From NCBI RefSeq assembly GCF_018135625.1, contig NZ_CP073078.1:1600001-1664000 (forward strand): a stretch of 64,000 nucleotides of DNA, written 5' to 3'. This stretch comes from Phenylobacterium montanum (GTDB lineage: Bacteria > Pseudomonadota > Alphaproteobacteria > Caulobacterales > Caulobacteraceae). This document shows positions 4,356 through 12,168 of this stretch, piece after piece (within the stretch, counting starts at the first letter, position 1; each line of letters begins with the position of its first letter). The translations under genes and the position numbers were made by a program. The notes beneath the pieces were generated by a model that saw only the letters and a list, made by a program, of their open reading frames with translations, did not search any database and was not told the DNA's origin.

Positions 4356-6170
4356 ATGACGGATCAAGCCGAAACGGCCGAGCGGCCGAAGCTGGACAAG
4401 GCGGCGCTGATCGCCAAGTACGCCGAGGAGCGGGCCAAGCGGCTGAGGGCCGACGGCAACCAGCAGTACCTGCAGATCACGGGCCGCCTGGCCCACTATC
4501 TGGACGACCCCTATACCCCCGTCACGCCGCGCGACCCCCTGAGCGATCACGTCACATTCGCCTTCATCGGCGGCGGCTTTGCCGGCCTGGTCACCGGGGC
4601 GCGGCTGAAGGAGGCGGGCGTGGCCGACGTGCGCCTGGTCGAGAAGGGTGGCGACTTCGGCGGCACCTGGTACTGGAACCGCTATCCTGGCGCCCAGTGC
4701 GACACTGCCTCGATGGTCTACATGCCCCTCCTGGAAGAGACCGGGCATCGGCCGAGCGAGAAATACGCCCACGCGCCCGAGATTCTGGCCCAGTGCCGGC
4801 GGATCGGCGAGCAGTACGGGCTCTACGAGCAGGCCCTGTTCCATACCGTGGTCACCGACCTGGAGTGGGACGACGCCCACAGCCGCTGGATCGTGCGCAC
4901 CGATCGGGGCGATGCGTTCACGGCCAGCTTCATCGGCCTCGGCACCGGACCGCTGCATGTGCCCAAGCTGCCGGGCATTCCGGGGATCGAGCGGTTCAAG
5001 GGCCACTCGTTCCACACCAGCCGCTGGGACTATGACTATACCGGCGGCGATCCCAACGGCGGGCTGATGGAGAAGCTCGCCGACAAGCGGGTGGCGATCA
5101 TCGGCACCGGCGCGACCTCGGTCCAGGCCGTGCCGCACCTGGCCCGGGCGGCGGGGCGGCTCTATGTGTTCCAGCGCACCCCCTCCTCGGTCGACGTGCG
5201 GGCCAACGCGCCGATCGATGCAGACTGGTTCGCCGGGATCGCCACGCCCGGCTGGCAACAGCGTTGGCTGGAGAACTTCACCCAGAACCAGGCCGGCGGC
5301 GGGGCCGAGGAGGACCTGGTGCAGGACGGCTGGACCGACTTGTCGCGCCGTATCCGCGAGAAAATCATGCAGTTGCCGCCGGAGGAGCGCACCCCGCGCA
5401 ACATGCTGGCGGCCTATGAGGACTCCGACTTCGAGAAGATGGAGGAGATCCGCCGCCGAGCCGAAGCCATCGTCGCCGACAAGGCCACGGCGGACAGGCT
5501 GAAGGCTTGGTACCGCCAGCTCTGCAAGCGGCCCTGCTTCCACGATTCCTACCTGCAGGCGTTCAACAATCCGAACGTCACCCTGGTCGACACCGACGGC
5601 CAGGGGGTTCAGGAGATCACCGAGACCGGCCTGGTGGTCGATGGGGTCGAATATGCGGTCGACTGCATCATCTACGCCTCGGGCTTCGAGGTCGGCACCG
5701 AGTACAAGCGCCGGGCCGGGTTCGACATGACCGGGCGCGATGGGCTCAAGCTGTCAGAGGCCTGGGCCGAGGGCATGCGCACCCTGCACGGGGTGCACAG
5801 TCACGGCTTTCCCAACGCCTTCTTCGTGCAGCCGACCCAGGGCGCGAACCTGATCTCGAACGTGCCGCACAACCTGACCGAGGCCGGCCGGACCATCGGC
5901 ATGATCGTGCGCCACGCGTTGGACCAAGGCGCCCGCGAGGTCGAGGTGACCCGGGAGGCGCAGGACGCCTGGATCGAGCAGCTGCTGACCGGCCCCGGCC
6001 GCATGCTGGGCTCCCCGGACTGCACCCCTGGCTACTACAACAATGAGGGCCAGGACCCCGGGCCGGCGGCGGCGCTGAACGTGGGTTATCCTGCGGGCGC
6101 AGCCGCCTATTTCCGCTACCTGGACGCCTGGCGCAGCAAGGGCGACTTTGCAGGGCTGGCGTTCCGGTAG
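4356..6170 (+). CDS. Baeyer-Villiger-type flavin monooxygenase
   Basis: FAD/NADPH monooxygenase expected to insert oxygen into cyclic or linear ketones (class B flavoprotein monooxygenase). Visible motifs: first Rossmann GGGFAG (residues 72-77); the family [11 protein letters not shown] block (about 102-112); the Baeyer-Villiger fingerprint F-x-G-x3-H-x3-W-D at 214-225, with Asp in place of Pro; second Rossmann GTGATS (about 250-255). The N-terminal 60-residue extension and the total of 604 residues fit the longer phenylacetone/cyclohexanone-type enzymes. It converges on the permease-monooxygenase fusion with only 4 bases between them, so the locus carries two different class B monooxygenases end to end. 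Confidence 0.9.
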
Positions 6171-6174
6171 GGCG

Positions 6175-9030
6175 TCAGGCGGCCTCGACCTTAGCCTTGG
6201 CCGAGCTGCGAACCCTGAGGCCGTCATAGGTGTGCGGGCCGGGATCGAACCAGCCGAACTGGGCGCGGATCTCGCCCAGGACCCGGCGGTAGGTCGCCAC
6301 CTCGACATAGTTGGCGTGCCGCGGGGAGTCGACGTAGCTCATGGCGCCGCGCAGGTTCGGCCGGTGCTCGGCCTTCATGCGGGTCCAGGCCTCCAGCCCC
6401 TGACCGGTCTGGCGGATATTGGCGTCCATCACCAGCATCTGCGCCATCTCGTCGAAGCGCTGATAGGCGGCCGAGGCGAACTCGACGAAGCCCAGCACCG
6501 AGAGCCCGGCCAGCTTGCGGTGGAACAGGTTCAGATAGAGTTCGGGATGGCCGGCGTTCCAGGTGAACAGGCGCTCGTCCAGATAGGGGATGCGGTACTC
6601 GTAGCCGGTGGCGAAGAGGACGAGGTCGAACGCCTCCTCCGTGCCGTCCTTGAACACCGCACCGGTGCGGGTGAACTCGGCGATGTCGGGCTTGGCCAGG
6701 ATGTCGCCATGGGCCAGGTGGTGCAGGATCTGGCTGTTCATGATCGGATGAGATTCGAGCGCCTTGTGGTCGGGCGCCGGCAGGCCGTAGCGGGTCAAAT
6801 CGCCGGTGAGGACGTCGAGCATCTTCGATGGATCATCGGGCAGCATCACGCCCTTGGGCGGATGCACCTGGCCGGACAGGAAGACGTCGGTCGGGATACC
6901 GAAGATGTGCTTGGGGACGAAGCGATAGCCCCGGCGCACCGACAGGAAGGCGGCGTTGGCGCTGCGGGCGGCGTCGCAGGCGATGTCGACGCCGGAATTT
7001 CCGGCCCCCACCACCAGCACGCGCCGGCCTTTCAGCGCCTCCGACGAACGGTGCTCGACCGTGTGGCGCACGTCGCCAGCGAAACGGTCCAGGCCCGGAT
7101 AGGCGGGTAGGTTCGGGTGCCAGGTGACGCCATTGGCGCACACCAGGGTCTGGTAGCGGCGGGCCTGGCCGCTCTGCAAGGTCACGTCCCAGCCGCCCTC
7201 GGCGCCGTCGCCGATGGGCGTCGCCCGGGCCACGCCGCTGCCGAAGTTGACGCCGCGCCTGAGGTCGAAGGCGTCGGCGAAGCTCTTCACATAGTCCAGG
7301 ATCTGCCGGTGGTCGGGATAGTCCGGATAGCTGTCCGGCATGGGCAGGCCGAAGAAGCCGGAAGTGTATCTGGACGAGATGAAGTGGGCTGACTCGTACA
7401 TGGACGAGCCGGGGTTATCGATGTCCCAGATACCGCCGACATCGGTATGACGCTCGAACTGGTCGTAGGGAACGCCTTCCAGCTTGAAGGCGCGGGCGGC
7501 CACCAGGCCCGCCGGGCCGGCGCCGACGATGCAGACGCGGCCGTCATAGGATCGGGGCCGGGGGGCGGTGCGCTCGCCCTGGGCGCGCAGGTCGCTGACC
7601 GCGAGGCCGGCGTAGACCTTGGGCCGGCGCGCCTTGAGCCACAGGCAGAACCCGATGCCGAGGGCGAAGACCACGCCATAGAGGGCCGGCAGGGCGTCGA
7701 CCCAGGCGATGTCGAGCTGGGTCAGCAGGCGGAAATTGGTCGCGACCAGGGCTACAGCGAGGATCAGCCCGCCGGCTCCGACGCCTGGCAGGACCAGGGT
7801 GGTCCACGGGTTCGCGCCCTTGGTGCGGCGGAAATAGGCGATGATGGCCAGGGCTGCGAAGGCCTGCAGGCAGATCACGCCCAGGGTCGCCATGCCGATC
7901 AGGGCCGGAAACACCAGGCGATAGGGATCGGCGCCGGAGAGGGCGAAGGCGGCGAGGCAGGCCACCGTCAGGCCGCTGACCGCCAGACTGGCGTTGGACG
8001 GGGCGTAGCGCACCGGATTGAACCGCCCAAGCACCGGCGGCAGCAGCTTCTCCCGCGCCAGGGCGAACAGGTAGCGGGTGGCTGCGTTGTGGATCGCCAG
8101 GTACGAGGCCAGCAGCGACGTGCAGAGCAGCGCACCGGCCACATCGGCGGCGGCCTTGCCGCAATACTGACCGATCAGGGCGAACAGCATCTGGCCGCCC
8201 TGCCCGGCGGCGAAGGCCTTGGCGTGGCCTACGCCGATGGCGCCGACCGTGATCCAGCCGGTCAGGAGGTAGAACACCCCGATCAGGGCCACCGAAGCGT
8301 AGGTGGCTGCGGGAATGCTGCGGGCCGGCTCGCGCGCCTCCTCGCCATAGAGGGCGGCGGATTCGAAGCCGATGAACGAGGTATAGGCGAACATCAGGGC
8401 GACGGCGAAGCCGGGGGCGAACACGGTCTGGGGCGCGAACGAGGCCGCCGGCAGGGCCGCCAGCCCCTGATGGGCCACGACGGCGAGGTCGAACACGGCC
8501 AGCACCCCGATCTCGGCGATCATCAAGGCGCCCAGCACCTTGGACGACAGGTCGATCGAGCGGTAGCCCAGGACGCCGGTGATCAAGGCGCCAAGGGCGG
8601 CGAAGGGTATCCACGAGACCGGCGTTCCCAAGGACTGGCTGATCAGGGAGACGAAATAGCCGAATGCTCCGGCCATGCCGATGGTCATGGAGACATAGGC
8701 CACCACGGCGATGAAGGCCGCGCCCACCCCGGCCGGCTTGCCAAGCCCCATGGCCACATAGGTGTAGAAGGCGCCGGTATTGACCACCCGCCGGCTCATC
8801 TGGGCGTAGCCGACGGCGAAACAGGCCAGGGTCAGGGCCGCCAACAGGAAGGCGCCCGGCATTCCCGCGCCGTTTCCGCGCGACAGGGCCAGAGGCAGGT
8901 TGCCGACCATGGCCGCCAGGGGCGCGGCGGCGGCCACCACCAGGAACACGATGCGGGGCGTGGAAAGGACGCGGCGGCGCTTCTTGTCCTGTTCGAAGCT
9001 GCGGGCGGCGTCGCGGAGAGTCTCGTCCAT
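6175..9030 (-). CDS. Fusion: APC-superfamily permease + flavin monooxygenase
   Basis: One uninterrupted 951-residue frame with two complete domains. Residues 1-470 are an APC-superfamily amino acid/polyamine-type permease: about 12-14 hydrophobic segments, an N-terminal cytoplasmic tail, and conserved GFESAALYGEEAREPARSIP near 221-240. A charged linker (about 470-497) leads to an FMO: FAD Rossmann GAGPAG at 503-508, an FxGxxxH motif at 650-656, NADPH Rossmann GAGNSG at 675-680, and FATGY at 806-810. Both halves are near full family length. An even number of helices would put the enzyme on the cytoplasmic side, coupling uptake to oxidation; that is inference. It lies just downstream of the SDR on the same strand. 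A strain-specific loss of a stop between two adjacent genes is the alternative. Confidence 0.88.
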   Translation of the reverse strand: MDETLRDAARSFEQDKKRRRVLSTPRIVFLVVAAAAPLAAMVGNLPLALSRGNGAGMPGAFLLAALTLACFAVGYAQMSRRVVNTGAFYTYVAMGLGKPAGVGAAFIAVVAYVSMTIGMAGAFGYFVSLISQSLGTPVSWIPFAALGALITGVLGYRSIDLSSKVLGALMIAEIGVLAVFDLAVVAHQGLAALPAASFAPQTVFAPGFAVALMFAYTSFIGFESAALYGEEAREPARSIPAATYASVALIGVFYLLTGWITVGAIGVGHAKAFAAGQGGQMLFALIGQYCGKAAADVAGALLCTSLLASYLAIHNAATRYLFALAREKLLPPVLGRFNPVRYAPSNASLAVSGLTVACLAAFALSGADPYRLVFPALIGMATLGVICLQAFAALAIIAYFRRTKGANPWTTLVLPGVGAGGLILAVALVATNFRLLTQLDIAWVDALPALYGVVFALGIGFCLWLKARRPKVYAGLAVSDLRAQGERTAPRPRSYDGRVCIVGAGPAGLVAARAFKLEGVPYDQFERHTDVGGIWDIDNPGSSMYESAHFISSRYTSGFFGLPMPDSYPDYPDHRQILDYVKSFADAFDLRRGVNFGSGVARATPIGDGAEGGWDVTLQSGQARRYQTLVCANGVTWHPNLPAYPGLDRFAGDVRHTVEHRSSEALKGRRVLVVGAGNSGVDIACDAARSANAAFLSVRRGYRFVPKHIFGIPTDVFLSGQVHPPKGVMLPDDPSKMLDVLTGDLTRYGLPAPDHKALESHPIMNSQILHHLAHGDILAKPDIAEFTRTGAVFKDGTEEAFDLVLFATGYEYRIPYLDERLFTWNAGHPELYLNLFHRKLAGLSVLGFVEFASAAYQRFDEMAQMLVMDANIRQTGQGLEAWTRMKAEHRPNLRGAMSYVDSPRHANYVEVATYRRVLGEIRAQFGWFDPGPHTYDGLRVRSSAKAKVEAA

Positions 9031-9051
9031 GGTCGTCCTTGCAGCTTCAGG

Positions 9052-9867
9052 TTAGAGGGAGAGGCCGCGTTCGGCCAGGAAGCGGGCCTGGCCCTTGCGG
9101 CCCTCGGCCTCGAGCAGGGGCAGGATGCGCGGCTGCAGCCAGGGCAACGCCCCCGCCAACCGACCGATCACCCCGTCGCCATAGGGCACGTAGACCTCGG
9201 CCTTGTCGCCATCAAGGGCGCGAAGGGCCGCCTCGGCCACCTGATCCGTGGTCAGCACGGTCTTGTTGAGGAAGTTCAGCGGCGAGCCGCCGTGGGTGGC
9301 CTCATAGCGCAGCATCGGCGTATCGACCGCGCCCGGCAGCACCGCGTTCACCTGCACGCCCAAGGGCGCCATCTCCAGCCGAACCGAGGCCAGAAAGCCG
9401 CGCAGGCCGAACTTGGAGGCGCTGTAGGCGGCGCTGCCCGGCAGGGCGATGAGGCCGGCGGCGGAGACGATCGAGAGGATCGCACCCGAGCCTCGCGACC
9501 CCATCACCCTCGCCGCGGCCCGGGTCAGGCACATGGGCGCGATCAGGTTCACCTGGACATGGCGGATCATGTCCTCGTCGCCGATCTCGGTCACAGGGCC
9601 GGGCAGGATCAGGCCGGCGTTGTTGACCAGGAGGTCTATGGCCGGCGTGCGCGCCTGGATCAGCCGGCAGAGCTCAGCCACGCCGGCGGGGTCTGCGAGG
9701 TCGGCCACGGCCTGCTGCACCACTCGGCCGAGCCGCCCCGCCGCCTCGGCCATGCGGGCCGCGTCGCGGTCGGCCAGGATCAAGTCGAAGCCGCGGGCCT
9801 CCAGCTTCTGCGCTAGGGCCATGGCGATGGCCCCGCCCCCGCCCGTGATCAGCGCCGTCTTGCTCAA
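9052..9867 (-). CDS. SDR-family oxidoreductase
   Basis: Classical short-chain dehydrogenase of about 271 residues. Present are the NNAG motif, the catalytic Ser (in LSIVSAAG) and the YSASK Tyr-Lys pair, plus PGAVDTPM after beta-6. Odd: the cofactor loop reads TGGGGAIA, so both later glycines of TGxxxGxG are alanines; the acidic residue in LILADRD suggests NAD(H). I chose TTG at 9867 because GGGAGG sits 5 bases upstream and the protein then begins MSKTALITGG; ATG at 9888 and TTG at 9897 are in frame but have weaker context. It lies 21 bases upstream of the permease-monooxygenase gene, so the two are probably one operon under the divergent TetR. Confidence 0.87.
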   Translation of the reverse strand: MSKTALITGGGGAIAMALAQKLEARGFDLILADRDAARMAEAAGRLGRVVQQAVADLADPAGVAELCRLIQARTPAIDLLVNNAGLILPGPVTEIGDEDMIRHVQVNLIAPMCLTRAAARVMGSRGSGAILSIVSAAGLIALPGSAAYSASKFGLRGFLASVRLEMAPLGVQVNAVLPGAVDTPMLRYEATHGGSPLNFLNKTVLTTDQVAEAALRALDGDKAEVYVPYGDGVIGRLAGALPWLQPRILPLLEAEGRKGQARFLAERGLSL

Positions 9868-9896
9868 TGCCGCCTCCCAGCCAAACATGACAATCA

Positions 9897-9917
9897 ATCA
9901 CATTTGCTAAATGTGAT
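9897..9917. promoter_or_regulatory. Palindromic operator, probably for the adjacent TetR
   Basis: Perfect inverted repeat with 9-bp arms ATCACATTT / AAATGTGAT around a 3-bp centre. It lies between the divergent SDR and TetR genes, 47 bases before the TetR start, so the regulator could repress both itself and the SDR/fusion operon. Size and symmetry fit TetR-family operators. Confidence 0.75.
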
Positions 9918-9963
9918 AGTCCATCATATTTGAGCCCGCAAGCGGAAACCTCGAAGGATCGCC

Positions 9964-10629
9964 ATGACCACCCAGCCCCCCCGCCGCCGCGCGGTGCAGG
10001 CCCGCTCGCGCGAGACGGTGGAGCGCATCCTGAACGCCGCCTCTGAACTGATCGCCGAGCGCGGGGCCGACGGGGCGACCATGACCGAAATCGCCCAGCG
10101 GGCCGGCGTGGCCATGGGCTCGCTCTATCAATACTTTCCAGACAAGGCCGGGGTGATGGCCGCGCTGTTCGAGCGCCACGCCGCCCTGGTGCGCGAGATG
10201 CTGGCCGCCGCGACCGCCGGGGCCAAGCGGCTGGATGACCTGATCGCCCGGATCGGCGCCGTGGCCCAGGCCTATTTCGACCTGCACCGCGACGATCCGG
10301 TGGTGCGCAGCCTGTGGGCCGCGGTGCAGACCGACCCGGACCTGCAGGCGCTGGACGTGGCCGACAGCCTGGCCAACGCTCGGATGCTGTTCGACGTCGC
10401 CCGCCCGCTCTACGCCCGCGTCGACGAGACCCGGCTGATGGCCGCCTGCACCATCTGCATGCATCTGGCGGCGACCGCGGCCCGCCTGGCCCTGGCCATC
10501 CCCGCCCCGCTGGGCGCGGCGACGCCCGAAGTTTTTTCCGGCATGGTCAGCGGCTATTTCCTGGCCCTGGCCGAACGCGAAGCTGGGGGCGAAAAAAAAG
10601 CCGCGCCCGAAAGCGCGGCCAGTTCATAG
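9964..10629 (+). CDS. TetR/AcrR-family transcriptional regulator
   Basis: A 221-residue repressor. The N-terminal HTH is canonical: RETVERILNAASELIAERG, then MTEIAQRAGVAMGSLYQYF (residues about 38-57) with the recognition helix. The C-terminal ligand domain has the TetR_C Ala-rich helices. It is transcribed away from the SDR and permease-monooxygenase genes across a perfect 21-bp palindrome, so it probably senses a substrate or product of that oxygenase locus. The last 12 codons contain an A8 run and a G/C hairpin that look like a minus-strand terminator (10592-10619). Confidence 0.9.
   Translation: MTTQPPRRRAVQARSRETVERILNAASELIAERGADGATMTEIAQRAGVAMGSLYQYFPDKAGVMAALFERHAALVREMLAAATAGAKRLDDLIARIGAVAQAYFDLHRDDPVVRSLWAAVQTDPDLQALDVADSLANARMLFDVARPLYARVDETRLMAACTICMHLAATAARLALAIPAPLGAATPEVFSGMVSGYFLALAEREAGGEKKAAPESAASS
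10592..10619 (-). terminator. Leftward intrinsic terminator inside the tetR 3' end
   Basis: Seven-base stem GCCGCGC/GCGCGGC with a 6-base loop (10600-10619), flanked on the left by eight As (10592-10599). On the minus strand this is a hairpin followed by U8, a strong rho-independent terminator for a transcript arriving from the right. Rightward there is no U-run. Confidence 0.6.
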
Positions 10630-10704
10630 GGAGGAAACGCCCAGGAATGGGCAGGAACGTCAGGGACGTTCCGTGACGCTATTTGTGCTGCGCCGCAGTG
10701 AAGT

Positions 10705-10854
10705 TCAAGGGCCGGCGCGCAGAATTCGTATGCGCTCTTCAGCACGCGCACCGCGCTGCCCAGCTTCCGCCAGCTGAGGCGACCGGGCCATCGCAGCGGC
10801 TAGTTCGCGAGCGCCGGCGCCGCTTGCATAGTAAGCCTTGACCGCGGCTATCAC
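10705..10854 (-). CDS. Possible small protein (49 aa)
   Basis: Tentative. Minus-strand GTG at 10854 opens 49 codons (MIAAVKAYYASGAGARELAA..., ending ILRAGP) that are Ala/Arg-rich and helical-looking. AAAGGAGG abuts the GTG directly, which is too close for normal initiation, so the start is uncertain. In favour is the strong leftward terminator about 85 bases downstream, which needs a minus-strand transcript to make sense. The sequence could instead be a gene remnant or the source of a small RNA. Confidence 0.22.
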   Translation of the reverse strand: MIAAVKAYYASGAGARELAAAMARSPQLAEAGQRGARAEERIRILRAGP

Positions 10855-10872: not shown

Positions 10873-12168
10873 ATGCAGACCTCATCGATCGACCGCCGGA
10901 GACTGATCGCCGGCGTTGCGGCCGGGGCCGCCTTCGCCGCAAAGGCCGCCGCCGCGCCTCGCCCCGACTTCCTCTGGGGCACGGCAGGCGCCGCCTACCA
11001 GATCGAGGGCGGCAATTTCGCCAGCGATGTCTGGGTGCTGGAGCACCTCAAGCCCAGCCTGTTCAAGGATCCCTCAGGCGACGCCGACGACGTCTACAAC
11101 CGCATCGAGTCCGACCTGGCCATGGCCGCCGGCTTCGGCTTCAACGCCCATCGTCTCTCGATCGAGTGGTCGCGCATCGAGCCTGAGCAGGGCCAGATCT
11201 CCTATGCCGGCCTGGCCTACTATCGCCGGGTGCTGGAGACCTGCCGCAAGTTGGGCATGGCCCCGGTGGTGACCTACAACCACAATACCGTGCCCCGCTG
11301 GTTCGCCGCGGCCGGCGGTTTCGAGACCCGCGACGGCATCGAGCCCTTTGTGCGCTTTTGCGAGCTGGTCACCCGGCACATGGGCGACCTGATCGCCGTG
11401 GCCGCCACCTTCAACGAACCCAATATCGGCGCCCTGCTCAGCTGGATCCCCGGACTGCAGAAGGCCGCGCCCATGCTGCAGCACATGCGCCAGTCTCTGG
11501 GCGCCGCGACAGGGTTTCCGAAGTGGTCCAGCCCGCTGCTCGGCGACTTTCGGATCCAGCAGCCGATCATGATCGAGGCCCACGCCCGGGCCTACGACGC
11601 GATCAAGGCGGCCTCGGGCGACCGCTATCCGGTCGGCGTGACCCTGGCCTTGAACGACGACCAGGACGGCGGCCCGGGCAGCGGGCTGATGACCAAGCGC
11701 GCCCAGGTCCTCACACCCTGGCTAGCGGCGCCGGGCGACATGGTCGGGGTGCAGAACTACACCAGTTCGCGCATCGGCCCCGATGTGGACCTGCCGCCAG
11801 CGCCGGGGGTCGAGTTGACCCAGATGGGCTATCCCTTCGCCCCCGAGGCGCTGGAGGCGGTGATCCGCACCGTGGCCGGCCTGACCAGGCGGCCGATCTA
11901 TGTCACCGAAAACGGCGTCGCCACCGAGGATGACACCCGTCGCGTCGCCTTCATCCGGACGGCGGTGAGCGGGGTGCAGCGCTGCATCGCCGACGGCCTG
12001 GACGTGCGCAGCTATCTGCACTGGTCGCTGCTGGACAACTGGGAATGGACCAACGGCTACGGGCCCAAGTTCGGCTTGGTGGCGGTGGACCGCACCACCT
12101 TCGAGCGCCGCCCCAAGCCCAGCGCCGCCTATCTGGGCCGTATCGCCCGAACGGGCAAGGTCGCGTAG
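10873..12168 (+). CDS. GH1 family glycosidase (beta-glucosidase-like), exported
   Basis: Family 1 glycoside hydrolase of 431 residues. The N-terminus has a twin-arginine-like leader (DRRRLIAG followed by an Ala-rich segment to about residue 28), suggesting Tat export, unusual for the mostly cytoplasmic GH1 family. FLWGTAGAAYQIEGG opens the barrel; the acid/base Glu is E182 in TFNEPN and the nucleophile is E346 in VTENG; LLDNWEWTNGY near the C-terminus is the usual aglycone-site motif. The acid after the first strand is replaced by YNHNTVPRW (canonical His-Trp is changed). A truncated POT transporter follows directly, suggesting the original neighbour imported oligomers. Confidence 0.9.
   Translation: MQTSSIDRRRLIAGVAAGAAFAAKAAAAPRPDFLWGTAGAAYQIEGGNFASDVWVLEHLKPSLFKDPSGDADDVYNRIESDLAMAAGFGFNAHRLSIEWSRIEPEQGQISYAGLAYYRRVLETCRKLGMAPVVTYNHNTVPRWFAAAGGFETRDGIEPFVRFCELVTRHMGDLIAVAATFNEPNIGALLSWIPGLQKAAPMLQHMRQSLGAATGFPKWSSPLLGDFRIQQPIMIEAHARAYDAIKAASGDRYPVGVTLALNDDQDGGPGSGLMTKRAQVLTPWLAAPGDMVGVQNYTSSRIGPDVDLPPAPGVELTQMGYPFAPEALEAVIRTVAGLTRRPIYVTENGVATEDDTRRVAFIRTAVSGVQRCIADGLDVRSYLHWSLLDNWEWTNGYGPKFGLVAVDRTTFERRPKPSAAYLGRIARTGKVA

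What the first reader, a model, noticed from the sequence alone, without database searches (positions are those of the whole stretch)
6175..9030. Transporter-enzyme fusion: APC permease joined to a flavin monooxygenase
Both domains are complete (permease 1-470, FMO with both Rossmann motifs and FATGY to 951) in one frame of 951 codons. I know of no described permease-FMO fusion. The arrangement suggests a substrate that is oxidised as it enters the cell, perhaps an amine or amino-acid-like compound, or a membrane-anchored monooxygenase with a sensor-like permease. The SDR upstream, the divergent TetR with a palindromic operator and the convergent Baeyer-Villiger enzyme make it a coherent locus.
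Basis: partly seen in the sequence, partly recalled or inferred. Interest (0 to 1): 0.78.

Follow-up and report, generated by a model that had tools for sequence, protein, structure and literature searches.

The report
Permease fused to a flavin monooxygenase
One bacterial gene joins a complete membrane importer of the amino-acid permease family to a complete flavin enzyme of the oxygen-adding kind, and the same joined gene occurs in distant bacteria, so it is a real, conserved two-in-one protein that may oxidise a compound as it enters the cell; its substrate is unknown.

Summary
In detail: window 6175-9030, MINUS strand, is one 951-codon frame with a complete APC permease (about 1-484) and a complete class B flavin-monooxygenase-like domain (498-951). 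It is no artefact: 28 other loci carry both domains in one frame, 23 of them whole, in Caulobacteraceae, a Burkholderiales MAG, Rhizobiaceae, Methylobacterium, Streptomyces, other Actinomycetota MAGs and one MAG called Acidobacteria. One linker pattern fits 29 of 29 rows, trees favour one origin with modest support, and both halves are under purifying selection. An SDR gene lies beside 20 of 29 fusions and a related TetR near 10 of 29; the convergent Baeyer-Villiger gene found no counterpart. Unfused relatives of the enzyme often keep TetR and SDR without a permease; a Rhodococcus plasmid has all parts as separate genes. The enzyme has Ile where flavin monooxygenases have their key Asn, in 46 of 46 rows, so it may not be an ordinary N/S-oxygenase. 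Best reading (inferred): import-coupled oxidation of a small, perhaps amine-like compound. Five literature searches aimed at such a fusion gave no description.

The parts
6175..9030 (-). fusion gene, 951 codons plus stop: APC permease - linker - FMO-like domain
7579..9030 (-). permease domain, residues 1-484; 12 membrane helices by my reading of the model, with breaks in TM1 (near 36) and TM6 (near 218-223)
   Evidence: Pfam; model med1e63ed3e29 and Foldseek to AdiC, BasC, ApcT
7540..7623 (-). linker, residues 470-497; pattern [YF]-x(2)-[IL]-[AG]-x(3)-[LY]-R, then C-[IL]-[VI]-G-[AG]-G
   Evidence: 29 of 29 fused rows
6178..7539 (-). FMO-like domain, residues 498-951
   Evidence: Pfam; Foldseek best match DiatB 8z17/8z12
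7507..7524 (-). first dinucleotide motif GAGPAG (503-508), FAD by family
   Evidence: role as in passages of PMC10682829 and PMC7570161
7378..7380 (-). Ile551 codon at the place of the catalytic Asn of flavin monooxygenases (Asn57 of DiatB)
   Evidence: gap-free alignment at this place; 46 of 46 rows; N57A mutant entry
6991..7008 (-). second dinucleotide motif GAGNSG (675-680), NADPH by family
9052..9897 (-). SDR oxidoreductase gene, 21 bases upstream of the fusion, same strand (TTG start listed; an in-frame ATG lies at 9888)
   Evidence: related SDR beside 20 of 29 fusions
9897..9932 (.). operator-like stretch: palindrome ATCACATTT-GCT-AAATGTGAT (9897-9917) and a second half-site; similar stretches in related loci, compared by eye
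9964..10629 (+). divergent TetR-family regulator
   Evidence: Pfam TetR_N; related TetR near 10 of 29 fusions

Best explanation
The gene makes one inner-membrane protein in which an APC permease imports a small organic compound, probably nitrogen-containing, and the cytoplasmic FAD/NADPH monooxygenase domain tied to its C-terminus oxidises that compound, or its first breakdown product, at the inner face of the membrane. Oxidation would trap the compound inside and hand the product to the SDR, which oxidises or reduces it further; the divergent TetR would release the operon when the substrate is present. Shown here: one frame, both domains complete, a conserved fusion of probably single origin, recurrent SDR and TetR neighbours. 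Inferred: N-in/C-in topology (12 helices by my count, positively charged ends), import rather than export, the same substrate for both halves, an amine-like substrate, induction through TetR.
For: Single frame and domains. 28 other fused loci, 23 whole, across three phyla, including isolates Phenylobacterium aquaticum, Rhizobium wuzhouense, Rhizobium sp. C4, Methylobacterium hispanicum, Streptomyces sp. GESEQ-35 and Agrobacterium sp. T29. Both halves constrained: dN/dS 0.017-0.27 in the 6 of 7 pairs where it could be computed, permease and enzyme alike. Permease half folds like AdiC, BasC and ApcT with TM1 and TM6 breaks, and 71 columns are invariant in 25 fusions. Rhodococcus erythropolis pCRE138 holds permease, SDR, TetR and enzyme as separate neighbouring genes, its enzyme lying in the branch next to the fused ones. 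Stand-alone relatives of the permease lie beside amine-related genes (tyramine oxidase subunit and Rid hydrolase in Gemmobacter; VlmB-like and flavin reductase genes in Streptomyces).
Against: No substrate or activity is shown. Ile551 replaces the Asn said to stabilise the flavin intermediate in known flavin monooxygenases (passages of PMC10682829). Only 1 of 14 loci with a stand-alone relative of the enzyme has an APC permease in the stretch held, so the enzyme does not need this importer in general. 9 of 29 fused loci have no related SDR within 1.5 kb; 3 of these are cut by the contig end, 6 are not. The amine clue comes from permeases outside the fused branch, chosen as 5 of the 197 plasmid records with a match. 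No domain-interface score was available for the model.
Confidence: 0.55

Rival explanations
1. Export version: the enzyme domain oxidises a toxic or signalling compound in the cytoplasm and the attached permease exports the product.
For: APC permeases include exchangers (Foldseek best hit is the antiporter AdiC). Three stand-alone permease relatives sit in Streptomyces clusters that look biosynthetic. TetR control is common for export operons (recalled).
Against: Three rhizobial loci (L012, L033, L035) carry beyond the SDR a Phenol_MetA_deg outer-membrane gene (Pfam scan of the L012 copy; the other two by BLAST grouping), which suggests uptake for breakdown; the Rhodococcus locus looks catabolic: CoA ligase, enoyl-CoA hydratase, aldehyde dehydrogenase.
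Confidence: 0.15
2. Membrane-anchored monooxygenase: the permease half no longer transports but serves as a sensor or anchor, as the yeast amino acid receptor Ssy1 does.
For: A receptor that evolved from amino acid transporters is known (Ssy1, start of the abstract of PMC12958826). Fused permease halves are less alike than enzyme halves (38-65% against 52-73% identity to the window).
Against: 71 invariant columns in the permease half of 25 fusions, including the TM6 FxGFE stretch, and purifying selection similar to the enzyme half. A sensor would also be conserved, so this is not decisive.
Confidence: 0.15
3. Convenience fusion: two activities of one pathway joined only for co-expression; the permease imports the first compound and the enzyme acts several steps later.
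For: The enzyme often occurs with SDR and TetR but no permease: of 14 stand-alone loci, 9 have a clear SDR next to the enzyme (weaker SDR hits in 2 more), 8 a related TetR, 1 an APC permease.
Against: The linker pattern holds in 29 of 29 fused rows, and no separated descendant is seen inside the fused group; its one 'solo' row, L043, is cut by the contig end past the junction.
Confidence: 0.13
4. Artefact of sequencing or a missed stop at the junction.
For: None found at the junction.
Against: 28 other loci read through the same junction.
Confidence: 0.01

Closest known systems
APC-superfamily permeases (Pfam AA_permease_2; AdiC, BasC, ApcT by fold)
   Same: Complete permease half with TM1/TM6 breaks, Pfam score above cut-off
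   Different: Carries a C-terminal monooxygenase; far below the NCBIfam cut-offs of the 5 permease models it matched (best TIGR00909, 62.4 bits against 556.8)
Class B flavin monooxygenases (Pfam FMO-like; DiatB, ancestral animal FMOs, trimethylamine monooxygenase)
   Same: Two GxGxxG motifs, ATGY, best solved matches DiatB 8z17/8z12 (31-32% identity)
   Different: Ile in place of the catalytic Asn, His at the end of FxGxxxHxxx(Y/F) in the window, fused behind a permease
Stand-alone TetR-FMO-SDR modules (Parvibaculum and others)
   Same: Same enzyme subfamily (about 48-51% identity), SDR and TetR neighbours, similar operator stretch in Parvibaculum
   Different: No permease in the same gene or in the stretch held
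Rhodococcus erythropolis pCRE138 locus
   Same: Permease, SDR, TetR and FMO in one gene neighbourhood
   Different: Separate genes, with CoA ligase, enoyl-CoA hydratase, nitronate monooxygenase and aldehyde dehydrogenase genes
Transporter-enzyme fusions such as SulP transporters with carbonic anhydrase (Felce and Saier; seen only as a reference entry in PMC3924187)
   Same: Secondary transporter and enzyme in one chain
   Different: Other transporter family and other enzyme; no redox chemistry (recalled)

Membership tests
APC superfamily permease | Pfam AA_permease_2 above curated cut-off | tested here: met
   90.9 bits against 27, residues 23-433
APC superfamily permease | LeuT-type fold of 12 helices with broken TM1 and TM6 | tested here: met
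   Predicted model, mean pLDDT 84.4; Foldseek to AdiC, BasC, ApcT, TM-score on query 0.65-0.75
APC superfamily permease | Transport of an amino acid, amine or related compound | not testable with these tools
   Needs uptake assays
Class B flavin monooxygenase superfamily | FMO-like Pfam domain and two GxGxxG motifs | tested here: met
   192 bits against 22; GAGPAG and GAGNSG
Canonical FMO (N/S-oxygenating) | Motif FxGxxxHxxx(Y/F) | tested here: not met
   Window FAGDVRHTVEH ends in His; of 46 rows 38 have Tyr, 5 Phe, 3 His at that place. Definition from passages of PMC7570161 and PMC10682829
Canonical FMO (N/S-oxygenating) | Asn (or Gln) above the flavin ring | tested here: not met
   Ile551 in the window, Ile in 46 of 46 rows; aligned without gap to Asn57 of DiatB
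Canonical FMO (N/S-oxygenating) | NADPH- and O2-dependent oxygenation | not testable with these tools
   Needs enzyme assays
Type I Baeyer-Villiger monooxygenase | Motif FxGxxxHxxxW(P/D) | tested here: not met
   No Trp at that place in 46 of 46 rows
Type IIb FMO | FxGxxxHxxx(H/y/f)P with an N-terminal domain of about 160 residues | tested here: not met
   His present but followed by Arg, and the N-terminal part is a permease (definition)
ArsO or trimethylamine monooxygenase (NCBIfam equivalogs) | Score above curated cut-off | tested here: not met
   107.1 bits against 425 and 82.1 against 675
Conserved transporter-enzyme fusion | Both domains in one frame in several genera, homologous junction | tested here: met
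   29 fused rows including the window, one linker pattern; trees compatible with one origin

The most novel reading that the evidence does not exclude
A self-contained uptake machine in which transport is made one-way by chemistry: the permease releases its cargo directly into an attached monooxygenase that oxidises it with O2 and NADPH, a redox counterpart of group translocation, using a flavin enzyme subfamily that has abandoned the usual catalytic Asn and so oxygenates by a different route. It arose once and spread among distant bacteria, including small-genome Actinomycetota of fresh water (habitat recalled from their names).
Probability: 0.2. Interest if true: 0.8.

Novelty: new variant of a known kind. 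Interest (0 to 1): 0.55.

Why it matters
A conserved tie between a secondary transporter and an oxygenase would let one test directly whether tethering an enzyme to a permease gives channelling or trapping of the substrate. It also marks a flavin-monooxygenase subfamily with an altered catalytic position, and gives genes now labelled only 'amino acid permease' a testable second function.

Tried and rejected
Sequencing or frameshift artefact at the junction: rejected by relatives and by codon-position GC. Baeyer-Villiger gene 4356-6170 as part of the unit: rejected; its hits in the fused loci are the fused enzymes themselves at 23-28% identity (flanks of up to about 10 kb, shorter on short contigs, E up to 1e-5). 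Viral carriers: 71 pattern matches, none a relative. Plasmids: 197 records matched at 1e-40 or better, 1 holds most of the query, the fused Agrobacterium copy. Named families: no NCBIfam cut-off reached by the window protein or by the two other fusions scanned, in the best 25 rows or fewer shown. Substrate from neighbours: genes beyond SDR and TetR differ between lineages (penicillin-amidase-like, TonB receptor, esterase, S-methyltransferase), so no single substrate emerges. A shuffle test of the palindrome was spoiled because the stretch tested lacked its first base; I rest on recurrence in relatives, seen by eye. Mycobacterial MymA was considered as a relative by gene order (recalled) and not compared. 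The tests of one clade by likelihood (AU) were not run.

Literature: ten searches. Five aimed at the fusion (2, 8, 0, 9 and 2 papers listed), none of the listings pointing to a permease-FMO fusion. The others: SulP fusions, DiatB (none found), MymA (8 of 127 listed), FMO motifs (8 of 17 listed). The library lacks most subscription papers.

Full report
What is there. The minus strand of 6175-9030 holds one frame of 951 codons. Pfam finds AA_permease_2 at 23-433 and FMO-like at 498-855, both far above cut-off. Codon-position GC is steady along the frame, and no in-frame ATG, GTG or TTG lies between codon 453 and codon 510, so the enzyme half is not a separately started gene. AlphaFold2 on 21 fused sequences gave mean pLDDT 80.6 and pTM 0.71; the permease half alone gave 84.4 and 0.83. 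Foldseek put the enzyme half next to DiatB (8z17, 8z12) and ancestral animal FMOs and the permease half next to AdiC, BasC, ApcT and their kind.

It is conserved. A scan of one genome per species for 84,980 species, with two short peptide patterns and so a lower bound, gave 33 loci. Of these 27 carry both domains in one frame, 3 the enzyme alone (L041, L042, L044), 1 is cut by the contig end just past the junction (L043), 1 is a distant monooxygenase (L046) and 1 a fragment (L047). With the Agrobacterium sp. T29 plasmid that makes 28 fused loci besides the window, 23 of them whole. Of the other five, L036, L037 and L039 are cut by contig ends, L018 has a stop inside the enzyme half and L045 one inside the permease half. 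L036 and L037 are from one assembly, so these are not 28 independent genomes. Hosts by record title: Caulobacteraceae, Rhizobiaceae, Methylobacterium, a Burkholderiales MAG, Streptomyces and other Actinomycetota, and one MAG called Acidobacteria. The fusion is rare where sampled, the window's own genome counted each time: 5 of 199 genomes of its family (one with a stop), 2 of 5 of its genus, 2 of 385 of its class, 2 of 398 of its phylum; in these searches only the best few candidates of each genome were scored, except in the genus.

One origin is likely, not proven. One linker pattern fits 29 of 29 fused rows. In the permease tree, a quick one, all 29 fused rows and the contig-cut L043 form one group (SH-aLRT 94). 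In the careful enzyme tree of 52 rows the 27 fused rows long enough form one group with modest support (bootstrap 87, SH-aLRT 75; 89% of 200 bootstrap trees). The nearest unfused enzymes are those of Rhodococcus erythropolis pCRE138 and Streptoalloteichus. A Streptomycetales MAG (L019) groups with Caulobacteraceae in the enzyme tree but at the base of the fused group in the permease tree, so transfer, misbinning or tree error must be allowed for.

Both halves are kept. In 7 pairs of relatives, 6 gave a value: dN/dS 0.017-0.27, similar for permease and enzyme; the seventh was saturated.

The neighbourhood. A relative of the window's SDR lies beside 20 of 29 fusions; of the 9 without one within 1.5 kb, 3 are cut by the contig end. 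A TetR related to the window's (60 bits or more) lies within 1.5 kb of 10 of 29. Orders: TetR divergent, SDR, fusion in 4 of 6 Caulobacteraceae rows (window, L015, L030, L034; L018 has the TetR beside the fusion and no SDR, L016 neither); TetR divergent, fusion, SDR in 5 of 5 Rhizobiaceae rows; in nine Actinomycetota MAG loci (L020, L022-L029 where whole) the SDR is convergent and overlaps the fusion's end by 11-29 bases, stop codons counted. The palindrome at 9897-9917 belongs to a longer stretch that recurs, with changes and compared by eye, in four other Caulobacteraceae fusion loci and in stand-alone Parvibaculum loci. The Baeyer-Villiger gene at 4356-6170 found no counterpart in the other fusion loci as held. 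Of 14 loci with a stand-alone relative of the enzyme, 9 have a clear SDR next to it (weaker SDR hits in L013 and L041), 8 a related TetR, and 1 (pCRE138) an APC permease. So enzyme, SDR and regulator look like the older module, to which the permease was joined; this order of events is inferred.

The enzyme's odd position. In 46 of 46 rows, fused and not, the place of residue 551 is Ile, in the segment H-(F/L)-I-S-S-(K/R). It aligns without gaps to Asn57 of DiatB, the residue changed in entry 8z16 (N57A). Passages of PMC10682829 say that this place is mostly Asn, or Gln in one clade, that it is thought to stabilise the flavin intermediate, that its mutation in mFMO abolished activity, and that an enzyme with His there can do Baeyer-Villiger oxidation. 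This subfamily may therefore not be an ordinary N- or S-oxygenase. The Trp that marks type I Baeyer-Villiger enzymes is absent in 46 of 46 rows.

How it most likely works. APC permeases carry amino acids and amines and have their ends inside the cell (recalled). Both ends of the permease half are rich in Lys and Arg and I count 12 helices, so the enzyme should be cytoplasmic. The simplest reading is that the permease delivers a compound which the tethered enzyme oxidises, the SDR then acting on the product, under TetR control. Hints of an amine come from stand-alone permeases beside tyramine oxidase and Rid genes and beside VlmB-like and flavin reductase genes, all outside the fused branch; hints of catabolism come from the pCRE138 gene set and from Phenol_MetA_deg-type genes in three rhizobial loci. 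None of this fixes the substrate, and the missing Asn leaves the reaction open.

Known or new. Both domain families are known, and transporter-enzyme fusions are a known kind (for example SulP with carbonic anhydrase, seen here only as a reference entry). No NCBIfam cut-off was reached by the three fusions scanned, and five literature searches aimed at such a fusion listed none, within a library of open-licence papers. I call it a new variant of a known kind.

Noticed in passing
window 4356-6170 (+): Baeyer-Villiger-type gene convergent with the fusion, 4 bases apart; closest NCBIfam model is neopentalenolactone synthase PtlE at 719.9 bits, below its 1100 cut-off. No counterpart found beside related fusions.
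   Followed up: partly
L018 (= L011), 8001-10847: A Caulobacteraceae MAG has the fusion with a stop codon inside the enzyme half while the junction is intact: decayed copy or sequence error.
   Followed up: no
L020, L022-L029 (fusion with convergent SDR); L036, L037, L039 (cut): Actinomycetota MAGs, one called Nanopelagicaceae and mostly of 43-48% GC, carry the fusion; aldo/keto reductase (L020, L022) or GFO/IDH/MocA genes (L036, L037, L039) lie upstream in some. Freshwater origin is recalled from names.
   Followed up: partly
L083, L084, L085: Stand-alone relatives of the permease (46-49%) in Streptomyces plasmid clusters with VlmB-like and flavin reductase genes, and serS in two; they recall valanimycin-type pathways (recalled).
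   Followed up: no
L045 7995-10754: A record titled Streptomycetaceae has 37% GC, very low for that family, so it may be misclassified. Its fusion frame is broken by a stop in the permease half.
   Followed up: no
L014 9953-12631: Burkholderia ambifaria plasmid: AraC regulator, enzyme, SDR, then an Mpo1-like (2-hydroxy-palmitic acid dioxygenase) gene, which hints at lipid-type substrates for that unfused branch.
   Followed up: no
window 10873-12168 (+): Glycoside hydrolase family 1 gene beyond the TetR, with an export-leader-like N-terminus by eye.
   Followed up: no
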